From: Swingsia samuiensis
Lineage (GTDB): Bacteria > Pseudomonadota > Alphaproteobacteria > Acetobacterales > Acetobacteraceae
Assembly: GCF_006542355.1 (NCBI RefSeq)
Contig: NZ_CP038141.1
Location: forward strand, 1,181,501 to 1,245,500
Reading direction: 5' to 3'
DNA length: 64,000 nt
Part shown: one piece after another, positions 9,659 through 62,387 of the stretch
How the letters are laid out: every line of letters starts with the position of its first letter
How positions within the stretch are numbered: position 1 is the first letter of the stretch
Made by a program: the position numbers and the translations under genes
The notes under the pieces: model-generated
Database searches by the model: none
The model's input: only the letters and a program-made list of their open reading frames with translations
Told to the model about the DNA's origin: nothing

Positions 9659-11164
9659 ATGACTTCAAAATTGCCTGTGCATGGTTGGCGGCTGGCGCTT
9701 CTTATGGTGGTGGCTGGGGCTTTAACAGCTCTATCGTTGCCGCCGTTGTATTTTTTATTTGCTCTTCCTGTTGGGTTATTCGTTCTCTATAGGGCCGCTG
9801 AAGATGCCGTATCTTGGAAGCAAGCAGCATGGTGTGGCTTCTTTTTTGGGATGGGGTTTCACACAGCAGGTCTTTATTGGCTGACGAATGCCATTCTAAC
9901 ACGTGTTCATGAGTTTTGGTGGGTGGTGCCTTTTGCAGCTCCTGGCGTTGCGTTGATTATTGCTCCTTTGGTTGCACTTCCCGCGGTAATGTGTCGATGG
10001 GTGCCCGCAGGTTGGCGCCGTGTGTGTATGTTTGCTGGTAGCTGGACGTTAATTGATATGTGTCGCGTCCTCATTTTTTCGGGCTTTCCGTGGAATCCAC
10101 TGGGAAGTGACTTAGAGTTGCCCGGACGTATCGGCGATATATTGGTTCAGCCGGCGTCAGTATTGGGGGTTGATGGATTAACTCTTTGTCTCGTCTTGGC
10201 AGGCCTGTTTTTGTTTTCTGGTCGGCGTGCCGTGGTTTTTGTTTTGCTTGGGATATGCATGTGGATGGGAGCCGGGATGTGGCGCCTTTCTCATGAGCAC
10301 GCTCTGCCGATTATAAATCCACGGGTTGTAATCGTTCAAGGGAATGTACCTGAAGATGAAATTATTAGTTATGCACAAAGAGTAGAACATTTTCGGCGTT
10401 ATTTGGCGTTAACGGCAAAAGGAATGCAACGAGCGCATTTAATGGGAGATGATCGCCCGATTGTTGCGGTATGGCCTGAATCTGGCTTTCCGGGGCTGCT
10501 GGATCAAGATGGTGATGCGCGTAAGATGATTGCTCAGACTACAGGCGGGGCATCGGCTTTAATCGGATCCGATCGTGAAGAGAATGGGCATTGGTTTAAT
10601 AGTTTGGAGATGGTGAATTCTGTAGGTGATATTGCCGCTATTTATGACAAAAGTCGCTTAGTGCCGTTTGGTGAATATCAACCTAGTATTATTCCATTTA
10701 ATATTCTTCCCGGTGTCTTGACCCCTGGGCCGGGGCTAAAAACATGGGACTTTCCGAGTGTCGGTCGTGTGGGACCGATGGTGTGCTATGAAATTATTTT
10801 CTCGGGGTCGGTTGTTAATCGTCATCAAAGGCCAAATTGGCTTTTAACAATTTCTAATGATGCTTGGTTTGGGAATAGTGCAGGGCCACGGCAACATCTT
10901 GCTACAGGAAGAATGAGGGCCGTTGAAGAAGGGCTACCAGTTGTTTTTGCGAATAACACTGGGATTTCGGGGGTTTATGATGCTTTTGGGCATGAAGTGG
11001 TGCGTCTGGGTTGGAATAAAACAGATATTTTAGTGAGTGATGTATCTGCTCCATTACAACCAACGATATTCGCGCAGTATGGACGAATTATTCCAATAAG
11101 TTTGTCTATTTTGTGCGTTATGGTGGCCTTTCTTCCTCGTAGGAAGATAAGTTCAAGATATTAA
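9659..11164 (+). CDS. lnt: Apolipoprotein N-acyltransferase
   Basis: A 501-residue inner-membrane enzyme that adds the third acyl chain to the N-terminal cysteine of lipoproteins. The N-terminal half has about six membrane helices. The periplasmic nitrilase-like domain (about residues 220-470) carries the catalytic Glu in WPESGFPG, Lys in YDKSRLVPFGEY and Cys in MVCYEII, in the order expected for Lnt. A last helix anchors the C-terminus. The start is ATG 9659, which follows olsB after about 30 bp and has AAGGTAG upstream. The substrates include the NodT, MlaA and small lipoproteins found in this window. Confidence 0.95.
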   Translation: MTSKLPVHGWRLALLMVVAGALTALSLPPLYFLFALPVGLFVLYRAAEDAVSWKQAAWCGFFFGMGFHTAGLYWLTNAILTRVHEFWWVVPFAAPGVALIIAPLVALPAVMCRWVPAGWRRVCMFAGSWTLIDMCRVLIFSGFPWNPLGSDLELPGRIGDILVQPASVLGVDGLTLCLVLAGLFLFSGRRAVVFVLLGICMWMGAGMWRLSHEHALPIINPRVVIVQGNVPEDEIISYAQRVEHFRRYLALTAKGMQRAHLMGDDRPIVAVWPESGFPGLLDQDGDARKMIAQTTGGASALIGSDREENGHWFNSLEMVNSVGDIAAIYDKSRLVPFGEYQPSIIPFNILPGVLTPGPGLKTWDFPSVGRVGPMVCYEIIFSGSVVNRHQRPNWLLTISNDAWFGNSAGPRQHLATGRMRAVEEGLPVVFANNTGISGVYDAFGHEVVRLGWNKTDILVSDVSAPLQPTIFAQYGRIIPISLSILCVMVAFLPRRKISSRY

Positions 11165-11183
11165 AAATATTTTATCAAAAAAA

Positions 11184-11212
11184 TTGACAACCTATGGTTG
11201 TGAATTTACGTT
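11184..11212 (+). promoter_or_regulatory. putative promoter with palindromic operator for the XRE gene
   Basis: A perfect -35 box TTGACA (11184-11189) is followed after 17 bp by a weak -10, TACGTT (11207-11212). The inverted repeat ACAACC-TAT-GGTTGT (11187-11201) overlaps the -35 box. A palindrome of this size fits autorepression by the dimeric helix-turn-helix protein encoded just downstream. Confidence 0.5.
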
Positions 11213-11242
11213 TCTTTCACAAATCTGATGGAAGAAACGATT

Positions 11243-11791
11243 ATGAATCGCAGGAAAGGACCTGAAGACGTCAAGAATACTGCGTCGGCAAGCCCGGTCG
11301 ATGTACATGTTGGTAATCGAATTCGTTTACGACGCACGCTTATGGGGCTATCTCAAGAGAAACTTGCCGAGGCGCTGGGGCTGACGTTTCAGCAGGTCCA
11401 AAAATATGAGCGCGGCGCGAATAGGGTTAGCGCCAGCCGATTGCATGATCTTTCTCATATTTTAGATGTTCCAGTGGGTTTCTTTTTTGATGATATGCAA
11501 GATAAGAAACCTACAAGTATTGAGAAAAAAGAGACGTCGATAGAGCCCATGGCTTGGAGTGGTGGTTTCGCAGAGGAGCAGGCTACGTTTAGTGGTCCTA
11601 AGCCACATAGCTCTTCATCATCTTCTTCAGTACCGCGTTTATTTGAAACGCCAGTGGATGAGGCGGCTTTATTTAGTCGGCGTGAAACCGTTGATTTGGT
11701 AAGAGCATATTATCGTATTTCAGATAAAACTGTTCGAAATAAGTTTGTTGATTTGATGAAAAGCTTAGCCTCTGATGAGGCTAAGGGGTAG
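11243..11791 (+). CDS. XRE-family helix-turn-helix regulator
   Basis: About 182 residues. An N-terminal HTH_3 domain (about residues 22-80) includes RIRLRRTLMGLSQEKLAEAL and FQQVQKYERGANRVSASRL, and the phrase DVPVGFFFDDM is shared with the alphaproteobacterial PraR-like/XRE regulators. A low-complexity serine-rich linker (SSSSSS) joins a helical tail with LVRAYYRISDKTVRNKFVDL. I chose ATG 11243, which has GGAAG at 11230-11234; an ATG at 11228 adds five residues. The palindrome at 11187-11201 suggests it controls itself. The targets are unknown; relatives act in stress, adhesion or quorum responses. Confidence 0.83.
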   Translation: MNRRKGPEDVKNTASASPVDVHVGNRIRLRRTLMGLSQEKLAEALGLTFQQVQKYERGANRVSASRLHDLSHILDVPVGFFFDDMQDKKPTSIEKKETSIEPMAWSGGFAEEQATFSGPKPHSSSSSSSVPRLFETPVDEAALFSRRETVDLVRAYYRISDKTVRNKFVDLMKSLASDEAKG

Positions 11792-11792
11792 T

Positions 11793-12455
11793 TTACTCGC
11801 GGTGTAGGATCTGGTCATTTAAAAATGAAGCTAATTTTCCTGCTTTAAAATCAGCGCGGAGACGGTCTTCATCATATTCTGTGCGAACCCAGTCGATGAA
11901 GGAAAGACGACCTTCTGCTTCGGTTTGATAACGCAAAAAGAATGCATCAAGGATCCCGGTGCGTGATCGGTTGAAATGCCCAAAACGCCAATGCAGTTGG
12001 TTAAGAGCTTCTGTTGACGTGCCTCCTTCGAATAACAAAACCAGTCCAGATGCTAAACCAGCTCTATCTGCGCCAGATTTGCAATGCATAAGCATAGGGA
12101 ACTGTAAAGTTCTATACATGTCATAGAAGCGTAGGATACGGTCTTTATGAGGGGCCCCACGGCTTTCGAATGCCATATCCAAATGGGTTAGATTAAGGCG
12201 GTGGCTTGCTTTGCGGGACAAAGCATCCGAACCGCATTGACGTTTTCCTCGTAAATTTACAAGAGTGTGGAGGTTTAAACGACGTTTGAGGCTGCGTAAA
12301 CGCGATGGGGTTGGATGGTTGCAGCGCCACACTTTTCCCGGAACAACCTCTGAAAGGTTGGTCCAGATCAATCTAAAAATAGAGTGGTCTACAAAGAGGC
12401 TATCCCACCATGCACGTCTTAAGTCCGAATTAGACTTGATTGAGCCTTCAAACAT
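11793..12455 (-). CDS. dual-specificity/tyrosine phosphatase-like protein
   Basis: A 220-residue protein with a cysteine phosphatase signature HCKSGADR (C125 and R131, the CX5R loop), preceded by VNLRGKRQ, typical of the DSP/Tyr-phosphatase fold found in many alphaproteobacteria. A possible general acid is D93. There is no signal peptide, so it is presumably cytoplasmic. The fold includes inositol phosphatases, lipid phosphatases and protein phosphatases, so the substrate is not known. It is convergent with the XRE gene with almost no gap and divergent from the small lipoprotein. The N-terminal 40 residues have no recognised motif. Confidence 0.78.
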   Translation of the reverse strand: MFEGSIKSNSDLRRAWWDSLFVDHSIFRLIWTNLSEVVPGKVWRCNHPTPSRLRSLKRRLNLHTLVNLRGKRQCGSDALSRKASHRLNLTHLDMAFESRGAPHKDRILRFYDMYRTLQFPMLMHCKSGADRAGLASGLVLLFEGGTSTEALNQLHWRFGHFNRSRTGILDAFFLRYQTEAEGRLSFIDWVRTEYDEDRLRADFKAGKLASFLNDQILHRE

Positions 12456-51013: not shown

Positions 51014-53233
51014 GTGGAGAATACCCAGCGCGTGTCTGGCCCCGGGGAGAAAGTAAGCCCGGCAGTCATCCGACTTTATGCCGCAATGGCTGCCGCCCGT
51101 TTTCACGGGGTGGAGCTTGATATTCGTGACTTTGCAGCAGAACCCAATGAAGAAACACCTTCCCCAGCAACGCTTGCACGTTGGCTAAACGAGCAAGGTG
51201 CTGTTGCAAAGGGAATGCGCTTAAAGTGGCGTTATCTGATTCGGATGCATAATACGCCACCGATCGTTCTTATGTTTAAGGACGGTTCAGCAGGTCTGAT
51301 GGTGGCTGCAAATGCAGATAAAGGGATTGTTTGGCTCCGTGATCCCCTTGGAGGCGAGGGGGACCCTCCTGTTCCTGTTGATGAGCTTCGCCTTTCACAG
51401 GTTTGGACAGGCGATGTGTTGTTGGTTAAGCGTCGTCGTGATGAATCGGAAGCAGACGCGCGTTTTGACATGCTCTGGTTTGTCAAAATGGTGGGAAGAG
51501 AAGGTAAGATCTTAAGAGATATTGCCTTTGCATCTCTTGTATTAAGTATTCTACAGATTTTCCCTGCTTTAATTGTGATGCAGGTTTTGGATAGGGTCGT
51601 AAACTATCACTCCATGGCCACTCTGGTGACCATGACGTCCTTTGTAGTCATCTTCTCTTTCTATGAAATTCTTTTGACTTACGCGCGTCGCGAGTTGTCT
51701 CTGATTTTGTCAACGCGGTTAGATGCACGTATTTCGATGCATGCCTTCAACCGCTTGTTGGCGCTCCCTCTTGAGTTTTATGAGCGGGAACAGACGGGTG
51801 AGGTTCTCGGACGGTTTTTAGCGATTTTTAAGGTCCGCGACTTCCTTACCGGCCAATTGATGACGACAATGTTAGATTTATTTACGCTTGTCGTTGTGTT
51901 ACCCGTCCTGTTTTTAATGAGCCCCACTCTTGCGTGGATGACGTTGGCGAGTGCTGGGTGTATCGGTTTGATCGTTGTTATTTTCTTGCCTGCAGTGACC
52001 CGTACGATGGGAAAACAGATTCAAGCGGAAATGCGCCGTAGTTCTGTTTTGTATGAGACCGTTGCCGGGATTAGGACTGTTAAAACATTGGCTTTAGAGC
52101 CAACGCGCCGTGAAGAGTGGGACCAAAAAACAGCCGAGGTGGTGCGCTGGAAACTAGCTGCAGGCCGTATGGCAAATTGGCCTCAAACGTTAGTGATGCC
52201 ATTTGATGCGTTTATTAATCGAGGCATTATTTTGGTAGGTGCCTATCTTGTGTTGACGAGTTCGAGCCACCTGCAGGCGGGAGCTCTCGCTGGATTTATG
52301 ATGTTGGGTGGGCGTGTAGCTAGTCCTCTTGTTGGGTTGGCTCGGCTTATGGAAAGCTTTAATGAAGTAACCGTGTCATTATCAGAGGCGGGGATGGTTC
52401 TGAACCAACCGACAGAAACTAAAGCCATGACCACGGGTATGCGCCCTGTCATTAAAGGGGCTTTGTCATTTAATAGCGTTAACTTTGTTTATCCAGGTGG
52501 AACCACAAAAGCATTGAATGATGTGAATTTTGATGTTCCAGCTGGAACAATGTTAGGCCTTGTTGGTCGTTCAGGATCTGGAAAGTCTACCGTTACTCGA
52601 TTGTTGCAAGGTGTTAGCCGTAATTATTCTGGTTATTTGCGTTTAGATGGTGTTGACCTTCGTGAGATCAACTTAACTCATTTAAGACGCTCTTTCGGTG
52701 TTGTTCTACAGGATAACTTCTTATTTCGAGGGACTGTGCAGGATAACATTACGGCTGGTCGCCCGGGGTATACAATTGATGATGTTGTGCGCGCGGCTCG
52801 TTTGGCTGGTGCGGAAGAGTTTATTGAGCGGATGCCAGCAGGCTACGATACGTGGATTGAAGAAGGGTCAACGAATATCTCTGGTGGGCAAAGGCAGCGT
52901 CTTGCGATTGCTCGTGCGGTGATTAGTGATCCGAAGTTAATGATTTTGGATGAAGCAACCTCTGCTCTTGATCCTGAATCAGAAGCCTTGGTGAATGCGA
53001 ATCTTCAAAGAATTGGTAAGGGGCGGACGATGGTGATCGTTTCTCACCGATTGTCATCTCTTGTTGATTGTCATCAGATTGCTGTTATGGATCAAGGTAA
53101 ACTGATTGATATTGCTCCCCATCCTATTTTGCTAGAGCGATGCGAGATTTATCGCACATTGTGGTTGCAGCAGAATCGACACATGCAGTCTTCCGGCGCG
53201 TCTGATGCCGGTCAATTGAGTGAAGGAGAGTAA
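51014..53233 (+). CDS. Type I secretion ABC transporter (HlyB-like) with C39-like domain
   Basis: A 739-residue exporter half-transporter. Residues about 12-140 form a peptidase C39-like domain, but the catalytic cysteine is absent (LYAAMAAARFHGVELD where proteases have DCG), so it should bind the substrate and not cut it, as in HlyB. Six membrane helices follow (about 165-440). The ABC domain has Walker A GRSGSGKST (518-526), signature ISGGQRQR (about 622), Walker B LMILDEATSALD and the H-loop VSHRLSSL. GTG 51014 has AAAAGGA 6 bases upstream. The adaptor gene follows after 2 bp. A long repeat-containing RTX-type substrate is not in the window, so the cargo is unknown. Confidence 0.92.
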   Translation: MENTQRVSGPGEKVSPAVIRLYAAMAAARFHGVELDIRDFAAEPNEETPSPATLARWLNEQGAVAKGMRLKWRYLIRMHNTPPIVLMFKDGSAGLMVAANADKGIVWLRDPLGGEGDPPVPVDELRLSQVWTGDVLLVKRRRDESEADARFDMLWFVKMVGREGKILRDIAFASLVLSILQIFPALIVMQVLDRVVNYHSMATLVTMTSFVVIFSFYEILLTYARRELSLILSTRLDARISMHAFNRLLALPLEFYEREQTGEVLGRFLAIFKVRDFLTGQLMTTMLDLFTLVVVLPVLFLMSPTLAWMTLASAGCIGLIVVIFLPAVTRTMGKQIQAEMRRSSVLYETVAGIRTVKTLALEPTRREEWDQKTAEVVRWKLAAGRMANWPQTLVMPFDAFINRGIILVGAYLVLTSSSHLQAGALAGFMMLGGRVASPLVGLARLMESFNEVTVSLSEAGMVLNQPTETKAMTTGMRPVIKGALSFNSVNFVYPGGTTKALNDVNFDVPAGTMLGLVGRSGSGKSTVTRLLQGVSRNYSGYLRLDGVDLREINLTHLRRSFGVVLQDNFLFRGTVQDNITAGRPGYTIDDVVRAARLAGAEEFIERMPAGYDTWIEEGSTNISGGQRQRLAIARAVISDPKLMILDEATSALDPESEALVNANLQRIGKGRTMVIVSHRLSSLVDCHQIAVMDQGKLIDIAPHPILLERCEIYRTLWLQQNRHMQSSGASDAGQLSEGE

Positions 53234-53235
53234 TC

Positions 53236-54699
53236 ATGAGCTCTTCCGGTATTGTTCCTCAGGGCGATCATAATCAATCTTCTGAAAATGAAGATATCGA
53301 GAACGCAAATGGACATGTTATTCGTCCTGCGACGGACCCCTATGCTCCGCAGGGGATGCCTATTGCGCTGTTGGAGTTTCATTCTCCGACTACGGCGATG
53401 GTTAATTTGCCCGCAACAGCTTCGGCGCGTTACGTTATATGGGTTATTGGTTGTCTGTTTCTCGCTTGTTTGGCTGGGATGACCTTCTTCCCTTTAAACC
53501 GAGTTGTCAGCACAACAGGGCGTTTAGTTTCTACTCAACCGAATTTGATCGTTCAGCCTTTAGAAACGTCCATAGTCCGCTCGATCGATGTGCATGTTGG
53601 TGATTTTGTAAAAAAAGGTCAGGTGTTGGCTCATCTGGATCCAACGATTACAGAAGCCGATATTACCAATATGAAATTGCAACGGAATGGTTACCAAGCA
53701 CAGGTTGATCGGTTGAGGGCGGAAGCGGCTAATCAAGAGTATCGTGCCAATACGAAAAATCCGGCGTCTGTTGAACAAGCAGCTGCATTTTTGCGTCGTC
53801 GGAGTGAGTACCGTGCCCGCTTGCAAAATTATGATCAGCAGATAGCGGCTTTGAAGAATGATATTCAAGGCTATCGTGCAAATGCGGCAATGTATGCTGG
53901 GAAAATGCGTGTTGCGTCTGAGGTGTTGAAAATGCGTCAACGTGAGCAGGCTGACCAGATTGGTTCGCGTTTGTCTACGCTCGCGGCTCAGAATGATTTA
54001 ATGGAAACAGAAAGATCAGAAATTTCTTCTCAGCAAAGCGCTAATTCAGCAGTTAATAAGTTGGCCGCAATGCAAGCTGAACGGCAAAGCTATATTGAAA
54101 ATTGGCAAAGTAAAATTTATTCAGAATTAACAGAGACACAACATCATCTAGATGAGTACCGTAGTTCATATGCTAAGGCTCAATTGCGTCAGGATTTAAT
54201 TATTCTGAGGGCACCTGAAGATGGTATTGTATTAACAATCGCGAAGGCTTCGATTGGGTCCGTTATTCCGTCCGCAACACAGTTTATGACATTGGTTCCA
54301 ACCGGATATGGTGTTGAAATGGAAGCTGTGATGCGTGCGAGTGATGCCGCTTTTGTGAAAATGGGAGATCATGCTTTAGTTAAGTTTGTGGCTTTCCCCT
54401 ACACACAATATGGTGGTGCAGAAGGAACAGTTCGTGTGATTAGTGCTGACTCGTTCTCTAAGGCTGCAGGTGCTGCCGATGCAGATGGTAGCGCGGCGGC
54501 ACCAGGGAATATTGATGGGCTTTATTACCGTGTCCGTGTGCGGATAGACCGTTATACGTTGCATGGGCAGCCTTCCTTCTTCCACCCAGCTCCTGGTGTT
54601 CCGACGCAGGCCGATATTGATGTGGGTCAGAGAACGATTATGCAGTATTTCTTTAGCCGGATTACCCCCACCCTTTCAGAGGGTATGAGAGAGCCATAA
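53236..54699 (+). CDS. HlyD-family type I secretion adaptor
   Basis: 487 residues: a cytoplasmic N-terminal tail of about 70, a single membrane helix (about 73-93), then a lipoyl-like half (LIVQPLETSIVRSIDVHVGD), a long coiled coil (about 135-320) and the second half (LRQDLIILRAPEDGIVLTIA), with a beta-barrel and the C-terminal DVGQRTIMQYFFSRITPTLSEGMREP. This ending is typical of HlyD/PrsE-type adaptors. It pairs with the ABC protein upstream and recruits a TolC-like outer channel; none is encoded beside it. A terminator follows at once. Confidence 0.93.
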   Translation: MSSSGIVPQGDHNQSSENEDIENANGHVIRPATDPYAPQGMPIALLEFHSPTTAMVNLPATASARYVIWVIGCLFLACLAGMTFFPLNRVVSTTGRLVSTQPNLIVQPLETSIVRSIDVHVGDFVKKGQVLAHLDPTITEADITNMKLQRNGYQAQVDRLRAEAANQEYRANTKNPASVEQAAAFLRRRSEYRARLQNYDQQIAALKNDIQGYRANAAMYAGKMRVASEVLKMRQREQADQIGSRLSTLAAQNDLMETERSEISSQQSANSAVNKLAAMQAERQSYIENWQSKIYSELTETQHHLDEYRSSYAKAQLRQDLIILRAPEDGIVLTIAKASIGSVIPSATQFMTLVPTGYGVEMEAVMRASDAAFVKMGDHALVKFVAFPYTQYGGAEGTVRVISADSFSKAAGAADADGSAAAPGNIDGLYYRVRVRIDRYTLHGQPSFFHPAPGVPTQADIDVGQRTIMQYFFSRITPTLSEGMREP

Positions 54700-54735: not shown

Positions 54736-54764
54736 CTTTGGAGTCCGTTCAAGGTTTTGAGATT

Positions 54765-56513
54765 ATGACATTTAAGCGCCGTGTTACGTCTCTTGTTTCT
54801 TCAAAAGGGAAGCTAGAGCAAGCAATTCACTATATGGAAACAGGTGAAGCTGTTCGCGGCTTTGCTATATTGAGTCGTCTCGCTGCGCAGGGGGATAAGG
54901 AAGCTCAGTTTCGGGTTGGGCGTGCATATTTAAATGGCCAAGGAGTACCGCCAAGCCTAGAGGATGGAGCCCGGTGGTTGTTTACCGCTGCTGAAAAGCA
55001 CCACCGAGAGGCTATGTTTGTCTTGGCAACTTTGTATGTTGTCGGGCTTCCGGAAGATTTTGAAATAAAAACGATGGATGCAGGGTTAGACCTTGCGCCG
55101 AAACCTGTGAGCGGGCCCCGCAAACCCGATTTTCATCAAGGCTTACATTGGGCTAAGATTGCTGCCGACCATGGCTCAGCTGATGCACAGGCTCTTTTAG
55201 GGTATATTTTAACAAATGGCCCAGAAGATATAAAAAATATTGAGCAAGCGCGTTATTGGTATGAAAAATCTGCGGCAGCCGACTGTTCTCAAGGGCATTT
55301 GGGGGTCGCTTTAGATCTGTTGCAAAACAACCCGACGGATGAGCAAGGTAAAATAGCAGCGGACCATCTCAAAAAAGCAACGGAAGGTGGTTTGGGAACG
55401 GCGTTTGAATTGCTTGGGCGGATGAGTGAAAATGGGATTATTTTACCGCATGATATGAAGGCGGCAGCACATTATTATCATGAAGCCGCTGAAAGAAATG
55501 TTGTTTTTGCTCAAGCTCGCTATGGACTGATGCTGTTAGAAGGTGTCGGTGTTGAGCAGCATTATGGGCGTGCGGAAACATGGTTAAGGCGAGCAGCCCT
55601 CAACGCAGATGCAGAATCGGCAGCACTTCTTGGAGACCTTTATGCCAATGGAGGAGAGCTGCCACCTAATATCGTAGAGGCCGCGAAATGGTATCGCTTA
55701 GCCGCAGAACAAAATCATAGTGGTGCTGCACGTGCTTTGGGTATTTTATTTTTGACAGGCAAGGGTGTCCATCGTGACCCTGACGCAGCGACACATTGGT
55801 TTCAAGTGGCGGCTGCAGCAGGAGATGTAAAGGCTGCTGCTGATTTTGGTAATTTATTGTTAACGGGCGCAGGGGCGTCTGAGGAAGAAAAAAATGCTTT
55901 AAAGAAAAGTTTTGAAGAAGCTGCTGCCAAAGGAGATTTGGTTGGCGCTTTTAATTTGGGTGTTTGTCTTTCTGAGGGGGTTGGTAGCTCGTCAGATGAG
56001 CGTGAAGCCGTTGAGTGGATGAAAAAAGCTGCTGAAGGGGTTGTGAATGCTCAATACTGGTATGGCCGCATGTTGCTTGAAGGACGCGGGGTAGAACCTG
56101 ACCCGAAAGAGGCCTTTCTGTGGATCGAAAAGGCTGCAGAAGCCGGTATGGACGAAGCGCAGGTGGCTCTTGCACAACTGTTGGTTACAGGACAGGTGGA
56201 TGGAATTAAGGATCATGTGCGTGCGTTTGGTTATTACAGGCGTGCAGCGGAAGTCGGTAATGTAAACGCGATGTTCTCTTTGGCGGCGATGTACGGTGGA
56301 GGCCATGAAGTGCCAGAAAATCGTATAGAAGCTCAAAAATGGTTTCGTAAGGCTGCTGAGGAAGGCCATAGTTTATCACAATTGATGCTTGGGCGATATT
56401 TGGTCCGAGGGTTAGCCGGCGTTACAGATAAGGCCGAAGGGCGGAAATGGCTTTTGCTTGCCAAGGAGCAGGGTATAGAGGATGGCGAGATAGATTTAGA
56501 CACCCTCAATTGA
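54765..56513 (+). CDS. long Sel1-repeat protein
   Basis: About 582 residues made almost entirely of Sel1-like repeats (36-44 residues each, about 13 of them). Each has the A...G...A.(Y/L)GxxYxxGxGVxxD pattern, for example FRVGRAYLNGQGVPPSLEDG, YGLMLLEGVGVEQHYGRAET and YGRMLLEGRGVEPDPKEAFL. There is no signal peptide or membrane helix, so it is probably cytoplasmic, forming a curved scaffold for protein contacts. ATG 54765 is used, with AAGG 10 bases upstream; a TTG at 54738 lies just behind the terminator. It sits between the secretion genes and the glycosyltransferases and may organise them; this is inference. Confidence 0.85.
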   Translation: MTFKRRVTSLVSSKGKLEQAIHYMETGEAVRGFAILSRLAAQGDKEAQFRVGRAYLNGQGVPPSLEDGARWLFTAAEKHHREAMFVLATLYVVGLPEDFEIKTMDAGLDLAPKPVSGPRKPDFHQGLHWAKIAADHGSADAQALLGYILTNGPEDIKNIEQARYWYEKSAAADCSQGHLGVALDLLQNNPTDEQGKIAADHLKKATEGGLGTAFELLGRMSENGIILPHDMKAAAHYYHEAAERNVVFAQARYGLMLLEGVGVEQHYGRAETWLRRAALNADAESAALLGDLYANGGELPPNIVEAAKWYRLAAEQNHSGAARALGILFLTGKGVHRDPDAATHWFQVAAAAGDVKAAADFGNLLLTGAGASEEEKNALKKSFEEAAAKGDLVGAFNLGVCLSEGVGSSSDEREAVEWMKKAAEGVVNAQYWYGRMLLEGRGVEPDPKEAFLWIEKAAEAGMDEAQVALAQLLVTGQVDGIKDHVRAFGYYRRAAEVGNVNAMFSLAAMYGGGHEVPENRIEAQKWFRKAAEEGHSLSQLMLGRYLVRGLAGVTDKAEGRKWLLLAKEQGIEDGEIDLDTLN

Positions 56514-56537: not shown

Positions 56538-59489
56538 ATGAGAGAAAAAGGATCTGATCAACCAGACCTGACGGGAACAACTTCTCGCGTTAATTTTAGT
56601 GGGTATGGCCATAAGGTTACGGATGCCGACAGAGCGCAGTGGCGCGATGTAATGAATGCTCGTGCTCAAGAGGCATTTCATCGAGGGCAGGAGTTTGTAA
56701 AAAAAGGGAACTTAGAAGACGGTATTTTTTGGTTAGAGCGTGCTCATCGTATGGCGCGTAAAAGTCCCAATGTAACATGGGCCTTAGCCTTAGCGTATTT
56801 GAGCGCAGGTCATTTAGATGAAAGCTTAGTAAAGCTAGAGAGCCTTCACCAACAGTATGATTTACGAGAAGCCGCTTTTTTGGAAGCGGTTTGTTTAGTA
56901 AATATAAACCAAAAAAAGGAAGCATTAAACCGTTTGGGCTGTGCTTTAGGGCGTTTTCATGTTGTCCCGGAAATGACGTCACTTATTGAGGATTTAGTTA
57001 AACAGTTTAAGCGTGATGGATGGTGCACGCTTTCGAATAGCGGGGTCTTAGCGATCCATACACAAAAAGATATTCAGATTATATGTGATGGTAAGGAGGT
57101 TTTCTCCGGTAAAGCTGATGGATTATACTCTTTGCCGAAAGGCTGGAGTTCTGCACGTTGTTTGGAAGTAAAAAGAGGGCAGAAGCATCTTTTAGGAAGT
57201 CCTATAAATATAGCTTCAATTACGCGCTGTGAATCTTTGGTTCGGGCGACGGCCTCTGGTTTAGAGGGGTGGTTGTGGTATCCTGCTGACCCAGATCATG
57301 TACCAACAATTCACATTGGACCACAAGAAACACCACAGATTGTGTCAGAGTATGCGAAAGATGTTGATAGCGATCAACCTTTGCCGCGACCTCGGATATT
57401 TCGTATTGAATTAAGAAAAATCCCAGCACGAACTAAGCAGGTTATGATACGGGACGAGCATGGTCGCCCGCTGGTCGGTGCGCCTCTTAATCCAGATATT
57501 GGAGCCTTATTTAGTCGCAAGCGAAAAACACCCGCTTATCTCAGGCCACAGCCTGTTGAGGAATGGCCTGTGCGGCCCGCTATAGATCGTAAAAGCCGCG
57601 GTTGGGCCGTTATTATTCCAGTTTATAAAGACGAAGTAAAAACCTTGGCCTGCCTAAGGAGTGTTTTTGCAACGGTCGGGCCAGATGTTTCGATTATTGT
57701 TATAGATGATGCAACCCCTGAGCCGGCTTTGGCAAAAAAGTTGGATGATCTAAGGGTAGAAAAACGTATCACCTTAATAAGACATAAGGAAAATTTAGGA
57801 TATCCGGCTTCAGTTAATGACGGTTTGCGTTTGGCAAAAGGTCGAGATGTTGTTTTGTTAAATAGTGATACTTTGGTTTTTCCCAAGTGGTTAGAACGCT
57901 TGGAAAAGCGCATGAAGACGACCGATGTGGGAACGTTAACGCCGTTTTCCAATGACGCCAGTATTCTTTCATATCCATCTGTGAAAGAGAGAAATCCTAT
58001 TCCTTCTTCTAAGCAAGCTAAAGCTATAGATCGGCTTTGCTCTCGGTTATTTAAAAGCGAAGAGGCGAGGATAGAACTGCCAACAGCCAATGGTTTTTGT
58101 ATGGCGATTTCAGCGGAGTGCTTGGAAGAAACGGGGCTTTTTCGAGAGGATGTTTTTAGCCTTGGATACGGAGAAGAAAATGATTTTTGCTTGCGAGCAT
58201 CTGCCTTAGGGTTCCGACACTATCCTGCACCGGATGTATTTGTTGCTCATTTTGGGTCTGTTTCTTTTGGGAGTAGCCGCAAGGCACTCATCACGCGCAA
58301 TTTGTCAGTTTTGGAGGCGTTGCATCCCGGTTACCATGCTCTTGTGGGACGTTTTATTCGTTCAGATGCCTTGGGAGGTTTAAGAAGAGCAATAGATGCC
58401 GCCAGAGTAGAAAAGCTAAGGGGGTCTCGTCCGTCTATTTTGTTGATTCAGCATGATGCTGGAGGCGGAGTGGGGAAAGCTGTCTCTGAAAGAGCTGCGG
58501 ATTGGGAAGAAAAAGGTTATTTTGTATTATCGTTGCGTCCGACTGAAGATGGGTGTTGGATTGAACCGTTACAAAAAGAGAGTTCTTCAACGCCCAATAT
58601 GACTTTTGTTTTGCCGCAAGAAACATCAACGTTTGTTGCCTTATTAAAAGATTTAAAACTAGCTCAAATAGAATGGCATCATTTAGTGGGCCATGCGCCT
58701 ATGATTAGACAGCTCCATGAGAAAGTTGGTGTTCCGTATAGTGTATTTGTCCATGATTATATGTCTTTTTGCCCGCGGATATCTTTGTTGAATGGTGAAG
58801 GGCATTATTGTGGTGAGCCAGAACTTTCTGAATGTGAGAATTGTATTAACACGTCGGGAAGTTATTTGGATGAATCGATAACGGTTTCTAAATTGTTGGA
58901 TCGCTCTCAAAAGGAATTTCAAAAAGCAAAGAATATTATGGTGCCGTCCAATGATACGGCACGTCGCATGAAGCGGCATTTCCCTTTTATTGAGCCTGAA
59001 GTTCACTTTTTAGAACAGGATATTCTTGAAAAGAATAGGGCGGGAGAAAAGGGACAGTTAGGGGCAGATGGTATTTTGCGGATTTGTGTTGTCGGAGGAA
59101 TAAGCCGTTGGAAAGGGTATGATGTTCTTTTGCAGATGGCTTCTGAAATAAAAAAACACTCCTTGCCAATTGAAATTGTTCTTGTGGGGCATACACCAGA
59201 TGATGAAGGTCTTATTGCGCAAGGAGTAAAAGTAACAGGGCATTACCAAGAGGAAGAAGCGGTTTCTTTAATCAAACAACAAAAGGCAACGATTGGCTTT
59301 ATACCATCCATTTCTCCAGAAACATGGTGCTACGCTTTAACATTATTATGGAAAAGTGACTTGAGAGTGTTGTGTTTTAATATTGGAGCACAAGCAGAAC
59401 GTATCCAGAGAACAGGACGGGGGATGGTTTTGCCGTTAGGAATGCCGATAGAAATGCTGCTTAGGTTTCTTTTAAGAGAAATCAATTAA
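56538..59489 (+). CDS. multidomain glycosyltransferase: TPR-like, GT2 and GT4-like
   Basis: 983 residues in several parts. Residues about 35-140 form TPR-like helices (GNLEDGIFWLERAHRMARKS; AGHLDESLVKLESLH). Residues about 160-300 look beta-rich and are unrecognised. A GT2 domain covers about 352-610: GWAVIIPVYKDEVKTLACLR, IIVIDDATPEP, DVVLLNSDTLVFPKWLERL and SLGYGEENDFCLRA. From about 630 a GT4/GT-B-like part begins SILLIQHDAGGGVGKAV and has VVGGISRWKGYDVLLQMASE and a weak GIGFIPSISPETWCY end. It is predicted to be cytoplasmic. Two transferases in one chain suggest two successive sugars on one acceptor. It follows the Sel1 gene by 24 bp. Confidence 0.85.
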   Translation: MREKGSDQPDLTGTTSRVNFSGYGHKVTDADRAQWRDVMNARAQEAFHRGQEFVKKGNLEDGIFWLERAHRMARKSPNVTWALALAYLSAGHLDESLVKLESLHQQYDLREAAFLEAVCLVNINQKKEALNRLGCALGRFHVVPEMTSLIEDLVKQFKRDGWCTLSNSGVLAIHTQKDIQIICDGKEVFSGKADGLYSLPKGWSSARCLEVKRGQKHLLGSPINIASITRCESLVRATASGLEGWLWYPADPDHVPTIHIGPQETPQIVSEYAKDVDSDQPLPRPRIFRIELRKIPARTKQVMIRDEHGRPLVGAPLNPDIGALFSRKRKTPAYLRPQPVEEWPVRPAIDRKSRGWAVIIPVYKDEVKTLACLRSVFATVGPDVSIIVIDDATPEPALAKKLDDLRVEKRITLIRHKENLGYPASVNDGLRLAKGRDVVLLNSDTLVFPKWLERLEKRMKTTDVGTLTPFSNDASILSYPSVKERNPIPSSKQAKAIDRLCSRLFKSEEARIELPTANGFCMAISAECLEETGLFREDVFSLGYGEENDFCLRASALGFRHYPAPDVFVAHFGSVSFGSSRKALITRNLSVLEALHPGYHALVGRFIRSDALGGLRRAIDAARVEKLRGSRPSILLIQHDAGGGVGKAVSERAADWEEKGYFVLSLRPTEDGCWIEPLQKESSSTPNMTFVLPQETSTFVALLKDLKLAQIEWHHLVGHAPMIRQLHEKVGVPYSVFVHDYMSFCPRISLLNGEGHYCGEPELSECENCINTSGSYLDESITVSKLLDRSQKEFQKAKNIMVPSNDTARRMKRHFPFIEPEVHFLEQDILEKNRAGEKGQLGADGILRICVVGGISRWKGYDVLLQMASEIKKHSLPIEIVLVGHTPDDEGLIAQGVKVTGHYQEEEAVSLIKQQKATIGFIPSISPETWCYALTLLWKSDLRVLCFNIGAQAERIQRTGRGMVLPLGMPIEMLLRFLLREIN

Positions 59490-59646: not shown

Positions 59647-60546
59647 ATGGAAAAGAAGTCAGAAGAGTCGGCACAGCAGACCCGTATTATAGATTTAAAA
59701 GCTGGGGCTCATATGATGGTGTTAGATGCAGGTGTTTTCTGCATTTTCCATACTTTGGGTCAGCAGCCTCCTGGACCAGCAGGTCTGCCTGGAGTTCGTA
59801 TTTCAAAAGCGCCTGGTACGCCACCTGGTATCGTGAGTGTCAGTACATTTGAAGAAGATGGTTGGATCGGCGGTATTAACGGAGCAGCTCTGGTTCGAGT
59901 TCTTCGTGGTCCGGCAGCTATTTTGGTAACAACCTATCAAGAGCCAGACAGCACCCATGAAGCTCCGAAGCTTCAAGTCGCTCAGCTTGCGGGGCCTGCT
60001 GTTGCACCATCACAACCAGCATCTTCACAGTCTAGCGGTGAAGTTGTTAGTGCTGAAGATATTGAAATCTCAGCTCATATTCAGCGTCTGGGTGATGTTG
60101 GTGGTGTTATTGGTAAATGGATGGGTGAGCCAGGAAGCCAAGCGTGGATTGAAGGCTTTAGTATTGAATCTAAAAACTCAGTACCATCAGAAGATATTGA
60201 ATATCAGGCTGTACTCGGAAAAGGTTGGCTTTCTCCTTGGGCTGAAGGCGGGCAGTATTGCGGATCTCGTGGAATGGCTCTGCCTATCCTCGGTTTGCGT
60301 GTCCGTTTGAAGGGGGAAGCTGAAAAGACGCATAAAATACGTTTGACGGCATCATTTACAGATGGCACCCGTTTAGGACCAGTTGATGGCTCTGAGGCTT
60401 TAGAAGCAGAAAGTCTTGCTCCATTAGAGGCATTCTTGCTTGAGGTTGTTGATCAGTCTGAAGCTGGTGAGACAACAAAAACAACAAAAAAGCCTGCACG
60501 TAGTAAAACAACAAAGACGACTACTAAGCGTAAAGCTGCAGAGTAA
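59647..60546 (+). CDS. protein with three ChW (hydrophobic W)-like repeats and basic tail
   Basis: 299 residues without a signal peptide. Residues about 11-97 are a beta-rich N-terminal domain, then a Pro/Ser/Ala linker (about 101-135). Three tandem units of about 38 residues follow (138-174, 183-222, 229-267). The second, IEYQAVLGKGWLSPWAEGGQ followed by YCGSRGMALPILGLRVRL, closely fits the clostridial hydrophobic-W pattern (GW..W...G..CG..G...-x-I-L). The first and third are looser, with FTDGTRLGPVDGSEAL in the third. The tail from 277 is Lys/Thr/Ala-rich (TTKTTKKPARSKTTKTTT). ChW domains are linked to cell-surface binding in Firmicutes. Its own promoter region of 157 bp precedes it. It could be cargo of the type I system or a cytoplasmic binding protein. 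Confidence 0.7.
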   Translation: MEKKSEESAQQTRIIDLKAGAHMMVLDAGVFCIFHTLGQQPPGPAGLPGVRISKAPGTPPGIVSVSTFEEDGWIGGINGAALVRVLRGPAAILVTTYQEPDSTHEAPKLQVAQLAGPAVAPSQPASSQSSGEVVSAEDIEISAHIQRLGDVGGVIGKWMGEPGSQAWIEGFSIESKNSVPSEDIEYQAVLGKGWLSPWAEGGQYCGSRGMALPILGLRVRLKGEAEKTHKIRLTASFTDGTRLGPVDGSEALEAESLAPLEAFLLEVVDQSEAGETTKTTKKPARSKTTKTTTKRKAAE

Positions 60547-60646
60547 TATGAAGTGTGTGCCCAGTCCTATATATGGGGCTGGGTATATTTCCTGATAAGA
60601 ATTGTTGTCAGGGTTGGTTGTTCTCTTTTAGATGCCGGGATTTGGT

Positions 60647-61885
60647 GTGCGTTATCTATTTGTTCATCAGAATTTTCCGGGACAATTTTTACATTTTGTC
60701 CGATATTTACACGAGCAAGGTGGACACGAAATTGTTTTCATCTCAGAAGCTAATGAAGGGAATATACCCGGGGTAAGACGTGTTATTTACCGTGTTCCCC
60801 GTCTTCCTTCGACCGCGACACATCCTCATGTACGTGAATTTGAATATGGCATTTTGCGTGCAGAAGCTGTGGCTACAGCAGCAAAAACTCTTAAAAATTT
60901 AGGTTATGAACCAGATATTATCATCGGCCACCATGGGTGGGGTGAATTATTGAATTTGGTTGATGTGTTTCCGACTTGTCCTATTTTAGGATATTATGAA
61001 TTCTTTTATCACACCAATCAAAATGATGTTGGGTTTGACCCAGAATTTCCATTGCGGCCAGACTTTACGCCTGTCATCCGCACAAAAAACGCGATTAACC
61101 TTCAAGCGCTTTGTTTAGAGCGTGGTTACGGGCAAACCCCTACCGAGTTTCAAAAGTCAACATATCCAGATTGGGCTCAAAGGAAAATTTCTCTTTTGCG
61201 AGAAGGAGTTAATCTCGATCTTTGCAAGCCTGATGCTAAGGCGCATAAACGTAATTTGGTAATTAATGGTGTTAAAATCACACCTAAAGATGCTTTGATT
61301 ACGTATGTTGCGCGTAATCTGGAGCCATATCGTGGCTTCCATAGCATGATGCGTGCTCTACCTAAAATTTTAGATGAAAGAAAAGACGCTCAGGTTATTT
61401 TAGTGGGCGGCGATAAAGTAAGCTATGGGTCCCCTCCTGCAAAGCATGGAAGCTGGAGTAATTTCATGCTTGAAGAATTAAAAGGTAAATTGGATTTAGA
61501 TCGTGTTCATTTGGTGGGTAAAGTCGCATATGATGATTTTAGAGCGCTTTTAAAAAGATCTGATGTGCATGTTTATTTGAGCTATCCTTTTGTCGCTTCG
61601 TGGTCCTTGCGTGAAGCTATGGCAACGGGGTGTACGATTGTTGGAAGCGATACAGCATCCGTTGAAGAGTTTATCCATGACCGTTCGACAGGGCGTATAG
61701 TTCCGTTTTTACAGCCTGATAAAATCGCAGATACGATTTTGGAACTTCTGGAAGATCGGAAGCAAGCTCGTCATTTGGGGCAAAAAGCTCGACGATATGC
61801 TGAAAAAGAACTTGATCTCCAAGAGTATTTAAGAAGATATGATGACCTTGTTCAGAATGTAATTGAGAAGAATTCGTTCAAATAA
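60647..61885 (+). CDS. GT4-family glycosyltransferase
   Basis: About 412 residues with a GT-B fold. The N-terminal domain begins RYLFVHQNFPGQFLHFVRYL and has IIIGHHGWGELLNLVDVFP and ILGYYEFFYHTNQNDVGFDP. The C-terminal donor-binding domain has ITYVARNLEPYRGFHSMMRA, AQVILVGGDKVSYG and the acidic/arginine motif SYPFVASWSLREAMATGCTI. This type uses nucleotide sugars in capsule, O-antigen or protein-glycan synthesis. GTG 60647 is chosen, since family members start (M/V)RYLFVHQNFPGQF and GGGA lies 6 bases before it; ATG 60632 adds five residues. Sugar and acceptor are unknown. Confidence 0.85.
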   Translation: MRYLFVHQNFPGQFLHFVRYLHEQGGHEIVFISEANEGNIPGVRRVIYRVPRLPSTATHPHVREFEYGILRAEAVATAAKTLKNLGYEPDIIIGHHGWGELLNLVDVFPTCPILGYYEFFYHTNQNDVGFDPEFPLRPDFTPVIRTKNAINLQALCLERGYGQTPTEFQKSTYPDWAQRKISLLREGVNLDLCKPDAKAHKRNLVINGVKITPKDALITYVARNLEPYRGFHSMMRALPKILDERKDAQVILVGGDKVSYGSPPAKHGSWSNFMLEELKGKLDLDRVHLVGKVAYDDFRALLKRSDVHVYLSYPFVASWSLREAMATGCTIVGSDTASVEEFIHDRSTGRIVPFLQPDKIADTILELLEDRKQARHLGQKARRYAEKELDLQEYLRRYDDLVQNVIEKNSFK

Positions 61886-61901: not shown

Positions 61902-62327
61902 ATGACGAGTAAAATTCTTCCCGGATTTGATAGCATCGTTCATGAATGGGTTGTAAAAAAAAGCTCAGCAGAACGTCCAATGCGTTTGAACGAACAAGAG
62001 ATCGAGGATTTAGCCAAAGCCTCGCTTGAGGCTCTTAAACATCGTGTTTTTGGAACAGGGTGGGGGCGGCTGCAGGAATTAACTGCTGGCTGGGTTGTTC
62101 AAAAGCAACAAGGCATTATGCCTCAACCTTTGCACGAAGAGGATTTGCAGGTATTCGCTAGCTTTGCTTTGGAGTCCTTGACGCGTAGCCCTTATGCATT
62201 GCAGGAGGGAAATACTCCATTGCAAAATAACAATGAAGTTGAGAGTGTTGCAGAGGAGCTGGAAGCCCCCAATAATGAAGGTGATATTTATAAATATGCA
62301 CGTGCTCATTTAGCTTCTTGCTTATAA
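61902..62327 (+). CDS. small protein with an internal duplication
   Basis: 141 residues made of two diverged repeats. Repeat A, about 7-50, contains FDSIVHEWVVKKSSAERPMR and LNEQEIEDLAKASLEALKHR. Repeat B, about 53-98, contains WGRLQELTAGWVVQKQQGIM and PLHEEDLQVFASFALESL. Both share WVV(K/Q)K, a proline, then an acidic helix ending in A..SL..L. An acidic Asn/Glu-rich tail follows. There is no signal peptide. I do not know the family. It follows the glycosyltransferase by 16 bp with GGGGC upstream, so it belongs to the same operon and may be an accessory or small adaptor. Confidence 0.65.
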   Translation: MTSKILPGFDSIVHEWVVKKSSAERPMRLNEQEIEDLAKASLEALKHRVFGTGWGRLQELTAGWVVQKQQGIMPQPLHEEDLQVFASFALESLTRSPYALQEGNTPLQNNNEVESVAEELEAPNNEGDIYKYARAHLASCL

Positions 62328-62364
62328 CTGCAATAAACGAGCGCTCTATTTTCGTGTTTCTGTG

Positions 62365-62387
62365 ACGGCTCTTTAATAGAGCCGTTT
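62365..62387. terminator. hairpin between the operon end and the minus-strand GT2 gene
   Basis: ACGGCTCT (62365-62372) and AGAGCCGT (62378-62385), loop TTAAT, followed by TTTAAAGTTTTT on the plus strand. It touches the stop codon of the GT2 gene on the minus strand and probably ends both. Confidence 0.7.

What the first reader, a model, noticed from the sequence alone, without database searches (positions are those of the whole stretch)
59647..60546. ChW-like triple repeat in a Gram-negative secretion locus
Residues 183-222 fit the hydrophobic-W repeat pattern well, and the flanking units at 138-174 and 229-267 fit loosely. ChW domains are best known from clostridial surface proteins. Finding them next to type I secretion genes in an alphaproteobacterium, without a Sec signal, raises the possibility of a non-classical cargo or a new carbohydrate or protein binding module.
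Basis: partly seen in the sequence, partly recalled or inferred. Interest (0 to 1): 0.72.

Follow-up and report, generated by a model that had tools for sequence, protein, structure and literature searches.

The report
ChW repeat protein partnering sugar-transfer enzymes
A repeat best known from the outer surface of Clostridium and its relatives has become, in acetic acid bacteria and their kin, an apparently intracellular partner of sugar-attaching enzymes, in a gene set that also holds a protein exporter and, in related bacteria, a likely exported protein.

Summary
ORF 59647-60546 (299 aa, genus Neokomagataea) matches Pfam ChW above its cut-off (26.6 v 22 bits). All three units align in register with genuine ChW triplets (hhalign 98.7%, E 4e-16; N-domain control 4.2%). 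AlphaFold gives a confident domain with three like strand sets (pLDDT 95).

The protein is no oddity (relatives in 104 of 150 Acetobacteraceae genomes) and is unlikely to be the secretion cargo. It lies in a conserved operon ABC-HlyD-Sel1-TPR/GT2/GT4-ChW-GT4. In Azospirillum and two unnamed alphaproteobacteria the neighbouring glycosyltransferase and the ChW protein are one polypeptide. The module is also fused to GT61 and GT90 enzymes. In 9 of 12 loci outside the canonical operon an RTX gene sits beside it or one gene away; it was not seen by eight GT61/GT90 fusions or six weak matches.

Best reading: a cytoplasmic glycosyltransferase accessory module in a system that probably glycosylates an RTX protein before type I export. 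Cargo and binding steps are inferred.

The parts
59647..60546 (+). ChW-triplet protein, 299 aa: N-terminal beta domain (res. ~15-116), low-confidence linker, ChW triplet (res. ~138-271), low-confidence Lys-rich tail
   Evidence: Pfam ChW 26.6 bits; family alignment; AF2
60055..60165 (+). ChW unit 1 (res. ~137-173)
   Evidence: in register with ChW triplets; strands 141-145, 149-153, 168-173
60193..60315 (+). ChW unit 2 (res. ~183-223), the one Pfam sees
60331..60453 (+). ChW unit 3 (res. ~229-269)
   Evidence: strands 229-237, 242-246, 260-269
56538..59489 (+). TPR-like + GT2 + GT4 glycosyltransferase, 983 aa (its TPR-like part matches a repeat model, PF12895, below cut-off); homologue fused to the ChW protein in Azospirillum, G699 and G671
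   Evidence: Pfam; fusions
60632..61885 (+). GT4 glycosyltransferase (PF12000 + PF00534)
   Evidence: synteny
51014..53233 (+). type I secretion ABC transporter; no Cys in its first 150 residues, so a degenerate C39-like N-domain is inferred
53236..54699 (+). HlyD adaptor
   Evidence: TIGR01843 331 bits over cut-off 208.65
54738..56513 (+). Sel1-repeat protein
   Evidence: PF08238 260 bits
61902..62327 (+). 141-aa protein without Pfam match; relatives (25-42% identity) in all 24 Gluconobacter and Neokomagataea loci; possible last gene
   Evidence: terminator-like site 62364-62386

Best explanation
The protein is a cytoplasmic accessory subunit of the neighbouring glycosyltransferases: a split counterpart of the C-terminal part of a TPR-GT2-GT4-N-domain-ChW enzyme. 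Its ChW triplet most likely holds the glycosyltransferase on its acceptor, by binding the growing glycan or the acceptor protein, so that an RTX protein is glycosylated in the cytoplasm and then exported by the operon's ABC-HlyD type I system. Shown: ChW membership, the operon, the fusions, RTX adjacency in relatives. Inferred: cytoplasmic location, the RTX protein as acceptor and cargo, glycan or acceptor binding.
For: ChW homology over all three units. Operon kept together: 49 of 97 loci with a ChW hit show ABC, HlyD, Sel1, TPR-GT2-GT4, ChW and GT4 together; of the other 48, 31 are stretches under 4 kb. TPR-GT2-GT4 and ChW module on one polypeptide in four loci: L112 and L119 (Azospirillum), L149, L150. 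Module in GT61 enzymes at five loci and GT90 at three; Pfam's ChW model is over its cut-off in two of these eight, and all eight match the window protein by BLAST. An RTX gene (PF00353 over cut-off) next to or one gene from ChW in 9 of 12 non-canonical loci; L151 holds Sel1, GT4, RTX, ChW, TPR-GT2-GT4, HlyD and ABC in about 15 kb. The own genome's one RTX protein over the Pfam cut-off (472 aa, about 205 kb away, beside two glycosyltransferases and an RgpF-domain gene) resembles the Azospirillum one including the C-terminal end: 33% over 241 aa, E 2e-19. RTX C-terminus and ChW co-occur in the family sample: 64 both, 40 ChW only, 5 RTX only, 41 neither of 150; Fisher p 4e-9.
Against: In the 49 canonical loci no ORF with >=3 RTX motifs lies in the stretch held, so the cargo link rests on other loci and on a co-occurrence not corrected for phylogeny. 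40 of 104 ChW-positive genomes have no RTX C-terminus match at E<=1e-6. Counting every non-canonical locus held, RTX adjacency is 9 of 26: none at the eight GT61/GT90 fusions or the six weak matches L071-L075 and L078. Of the 12 closer loci, L114 (Bradyrhizobium) and L118 (A. aceti plasmid) have none and L150 is cut by its contig end. The own genome has a second HlyD/ABC pair with a Cys-containing C39-type motif, which could export the RTX protein. Nothing here shows glycosylation or sugar binding.
Confidence: 0.6

Rival explanations
1. The ChW protein is a GT accessory module, but the operon makes an exopolysaccharide or another surface glycan, with the type I system exporting an unrelated protein.
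For: Fusions to several GT families; the loci L112, L114 and L119 hold sugar-nucleotide or LPS-type genes; no RTX-motif ORF in the canonical operon stretches or at the GT61/GT90 fusions.
Against: RTX adjacency in 9 of 12 closer non-canonical loci; ABC-HlyD kept next to the GT genes.
Confidence: 0.25
2. The ChW protein is itself exported by the type I system as a surface adhesin or lectin.
For: Adjacent ABC-HlyD; ChW proteins elsewhere are described as surface proteins (passages of PMC5817068); no evident Sec signal.
Against: Module is part of GT polypeptides; no RTX match in the window protein; C-terminal tail basic and variable among relatives.
Confidence: 0.08
3. The ChW domain is a scaffold that binds the Sel1-repeat protein or the RTX protein rather than sugar (protein-protein role). 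This is compatible with the accessory-module reading and differs only in the ligand.
For: Sel1 protein in the same operon; ChW was also predicted to act in protein-protein interaction (passage of PMC5817068).
Against: None decisive; the invariant Trp194, Trp198 and CGSRG stretch would suit either role.
Confidence: 0.35

Closest known systems
ChW repeat (PF07538) triplets of Bacillota surface proteins and endolysins, and a cyanobacterial triplet (Nostoc, L115)
   Same: Three units in register; hhalign 98.7% over 134 columns. The passage read in PMC5817068 reports suggested association in triplets.
   Different: The Nostoc, E. faecalis, Lactococcus and viral-contig reference proteins start with hydrophobic, signal-like N-termini (read by eye); here no such start, and the module is tied to glycosyltransferases. 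Unit 3 is strongly diverged.
Lectin (ricin-type) domains at the C-terminus of polypeptide GalNAc-transferases (recalled, not tested)
   Same: Three-unit accessory domain at the C-terminus of a glycosyltransferase in the fused forms.
   Different: No convincing PDB fold match was found for our model, so a shared fold is not shown; those enzymes belong to the eukaryotic secretory pathway (recalled).
RTX type I secretion operons (HlyB/HlyD type)
   Same: ABC and HlyD components; RTX genes next to the module in relatives.
   Different: Glycosyltransferase, Sel1 and ChW genes in the operon; the candidate cargo is unlinked in the window's genome.

Membership tests
ChW (PF07538) | Match to the curated profile above its cut-off | tested here: met
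   26.6 v 22 bits; 63 of 64 family members, the window protein included, match at E<=0.01
ChW (PF07538) | Tandem units in the register of known ChW triplets | tested here: met
   134 of 138 columns, prob 98.7, E 4e-16; N-domain control 4.2
ChW (PF07538) | Three-fold repeated structure | tested here: inconclusive
   Strand pattern repeats three times in a confident model, but coordinates could not be superposed here; unit-unit comparison gave no clear signal; three of the four best BFVD hits are named lysin, lysozyme or endolysin, their ChW content not checked
Clostridial-type surface ChW proteins | Export signal / extracellular location | tested here: not met
   No hydrophobic N-terminal segment (no dedicated predictor); module fused to TPR-GT enzymes. 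Not filed as a surface ChW protein
RTX type I secretion cargo (the ChW protein itself) | RTX nonapeptide repeats | tested here: not met
   No PF00353 match listed at E<=10
RTX type I secretion cargo (the ChW protein itself) | C-terminal secretion signal of non-RTX kind | not testable with these tools
   Tail is Lys-rich and variable
Glycosyltransferase accessory domain | Same polypeptide as a glycosyltransferase in relatives | tested here: met
   Four TPR-GT2-GT4 fusions and eight GT61/GT90 fusions
Carbohydrate-binding module | Sugar binding | not testable with these tools
   No assay; no convincing fold match

The most novel reading that the evidence does not exclude
A conserved alphaproteobacterial pathway in which a ChW-guided TPR-GT2-GT4 enzyme glycosylates RTX proteins in the cytoplasm and a coupled type I exporter secretes the glycoprotein, the ChW triplet having moved from a surface-binding role to intracellular acceptor recognition.
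Probability: 0.45. Interest if true: 0.78.

Novelty: new variant of a known kind. Interest (0 to 1): 0.6.

Why it matters
It would give a function to a domain whose cell-wall ligand is called unknown in the passage read in PMC5817068, and would link protein glycosylation to type I secretion in a widespread group that includes Gluconobacter, Acetobacter and, outside the family, Azospirillum. The fusions give a direct, testable prediction of who binds whom. No paper joining these was found in the library searched; that library lacks most subscription journals.

Tried and rejected

Dropped or uneven rows: A1 holds the window protein and 63 relatives, out of 90 non-redundant sequences listed (one of the 90 is the window's own copy). 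The six weak-match loci L071-L075 and L078 were only scanned for RTX motifs; L074 gave a 27% ChW hit. Some loci are the same record under two handles (for example L049 and the G054 contig, L060 and L080), so locus counts are not independent. Of 17 plasmid records matching the window protein I fetched six (H27, H28, H33, H38, H40, H43). Two of the eight GT61/GT90 matches (L066, L067) have a stop inside the matched stretch; the ORFs used are stop-free.

Full report
WHAT IS THERE. ORF 59647-60546 (+) encodes 299 residues. The genus is Neokomagataea: two genomes that the tool calls same-genus (G054, G131) have contigs of the lengths of the named Neokomagataea records L049 and L053. Pfam finds ChW at residues 191-223, 26.6 bits over a cut-off of 22. 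Of the 64 members of the family alignment, the window protein included, 63 match ChW at E<=0.01 and no other Pfam family was listed for them. AlphaFold2 gives two beta domains (about 15-116 and 138-271), with a low-confidence linker and Lys-rich tail (mean pLDDT 87.4).

THE TRIPLE REPEAT. I assembled six ChW triplets: one from a Nostoc plasmid (L115), three from an E. faecalis protein annotated as C39 peptidase (L116), one from a Lactococcus C47-peptidase protein (L117) and one from a viral contig (L111). Pfam confirms ChW in L115 (96.4 bits, 3 stretches), L117 (87.6 bits, 2 stretches) and L111 (155.6 bits, 3 stretches); L116 was not run through Pfam and rests on tblastn with a ChW query. Profile-profile alignment with the C-terminal domain family is 98.7% probable, E 4e-16, and runs through all three units. 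The N-terminal domain as control gives 4.2%. The domain predicted alone has pLDDT 95.3 and three like strand sets. The best viral matches of the full model are four phage proteins, three of them named lysin, lysozyme or PlyB-like endolysin and one 'putative cytoplasmic protein', E 5.7e-5 to 9.2e-4; I did not check that these hold ChW, and the output does not give the aligned range.

NEIGHBOURHOOD. The order is ABC (51014), HlyD (53236), Sel1 (54738), TPR-like/GT2/GT4 (56538), ChW (59647), GT4 (60632) and a 141-aa unknown (61902), all on the + strand with gaps of 2, 38, 24, 157, 85 and 16 bases. A terminator-like site follows at 62364-62386; the scan also lists weaker matches, one of them at 60590-60613 between ChW and GT4, and shuffles give 11.5 on average against 18 found. 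The ABC protein scores best with the HlyB-type model but below that model's cut-off (520 v 725.55 bits), and its first 150 residues hold no Cys. Relatives of the ChW protein are in 104 of 150 Acetobacteraceae genomes at E<=0.001, paralogues included. Of 97 loci with a ChW hit, 49 show ABC, HlyD, Sel1, TPR-GT2-GT4, ChW and GT4 together, 48 of them with ABC at 50% identity or more. Of the other 48, 31 are stretches under 4 kb (L001-L031); the rest are paralogue loci or cut stretches.

THE KEY EVIDENCE. In Azospirillum brasilense Sp 7 (L112) one 1396-aa protein carries TPR, GT2, GT4 and, at its end, a region matching window residues 5-280, ChW included; its ChW score of 18.7 bits is below Pfam's cut-off, and the relation rests on BLAST E 9e-29. 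The same arrangement occurs in A. argentinense (L119) and in two unnamed alphaproteobacterial genomes (L149, L150) by BLAST, with Pfam run on L149 (ChW 21.5 bits, just below cut-off). In Acetobacteraceae paralogues the module is fused to GT61 (L064, L065, L066, L069, L070) or GT90 (L063, L067, L068) enzymes; Pfam's ChW model passes its cut-off in L064 and L069 only, and all eight match the window protein by BLAST, E 4e-10 or better. A domain that recurs in glycosyltransferases, next to a glycosyltransferase gene to whose homologue it is fused elsewhere, is best read as their accessory module. That speaks for the cytoplasm and against the ChW protein being the exported cargo; the location itself is inferred.

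THE LIKELY CARGO. Of 12 closer loci outside the canonical operon, eight have an RTX gene (PF00353 over cut-off) immediately beside the ChW or fused gene (L077, L112, L113, L119, L149, L151, L152, L153) and one has it one gene away (L076); L114 and L118 have none by motif scan, and L150 is cut by the contig end. The eight GT61/GT90 fusion loci and six weak-match loci have none either, so over all 26 non-canonical loci held the count is 9 of 26. L151 has Sel1, GT4, RTX, ChW, TPR-GT2-GT4, HlyD and ABC in about 15 kb, with other ORFs between. The own genome has one RTX protein over the Pfam cut-off, at G000:C1 about 1,035,070-1,036,488, flanked by two large glycosyltransferases and an RgpF-domain gene; it resembles the Azospirillum RTX protein, C-terminal end included (33% over 241, E 2e-19; part of this is repeat composition). 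RTX C-terminus and ChW co-occur (64/40/5/41 of 150, p 4e-9), without correction for shared ancestry.

RESULTS AGAINST. None of the 49 canonical loci has an ORF with three or more RTX motifs in the stretch held. Forty ChW-positive genomes lack the RTX C-terminus at E<=1e-6, and five have it without ChW. A second HlyD/ABC pair in the own genome, whose ABC protein has a Cys-containing C39-type motif, could serve the RTX protein instead. There is no direct evidence of glycosylation, of glycan binding or of the RTX protein's export route.

MECHANISM. Most likely: ChW protein plus TPR-GT2-GT4 form one enzyme unit (strong); it works in the cytoplasm (good); it glycosylates an RTX protein (moderate); ABC-HlyD exports that protein (moderate); the ChW triplet binds the glycan or acceptor (open, about even between sugar and protein).

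KNOWN OR NEW. The ChW family is known. The passages read in PMC5817068 describe it as a domain for cell-surface anchoring or protein-protein interaction, of unknown ligand, mostly in endolysins; passages read in PMC8794177 name a cyanobacterial protein with 3 ChW repeats; a passage read in PMC8078820 lists ChW in a table of modelled repeat families, with dashes in the later columns. The other papers were seen only in the listing. The searches listed no paper on ChW modules with glycosyltransferases or on this operon; the one listing for 'ChW domain' plus 'glycosyltransferase' was the same surface-protein review, and the one listing was an Acinetobacter genome paper that I did not open. I file it as a new variant of a known kind.

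Recounting changed RTX adjacency from 9 of 11 to 9 of 12 (L118 had been left out) and added the 9 of 26 figure.

Noticed in passing
L120:7071-8489 (own genome C1 about 1035070-1036488): Only RTX protein over the Pfam cut-off in the own genome; flanked by 906-aa and 968-aa glycosyltransferases and near an RgpF-domain gene.
   Followed up: partly
L164:6419-9863 and 10641-12203 (own genome C1 about 742.4-748.2 kb): A second HlyD/ABC pair, the ABC protein with a Cys-containing C39-type motif, followed by a 520-aa ORF that looks Hint-domain-like by eye; not run against a profile.
   Followed up: partly
L063-L070: ChW-like module in GT61 and GT90 enzymes of Acetobacteraceae, with no RTX-motif ORF nearby.
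   Followed up: partly
window 61902-62327: 141-aa protein without Pfam match, with relatives in all 24 Gluconobacter and Neokomagataea loci.
   Followed up: no
L115:7737-8288: Nostoc plasmid protein of 183 aa with three ChW units and a twin-arginine-like N-terminus (by eye); it matches both the window protein and a phage-type ChW query.
   Followed up: partly
L153:7272-8330: RTX protein with a Hint_2 domain next to the ChW gene.
   Followed up: no
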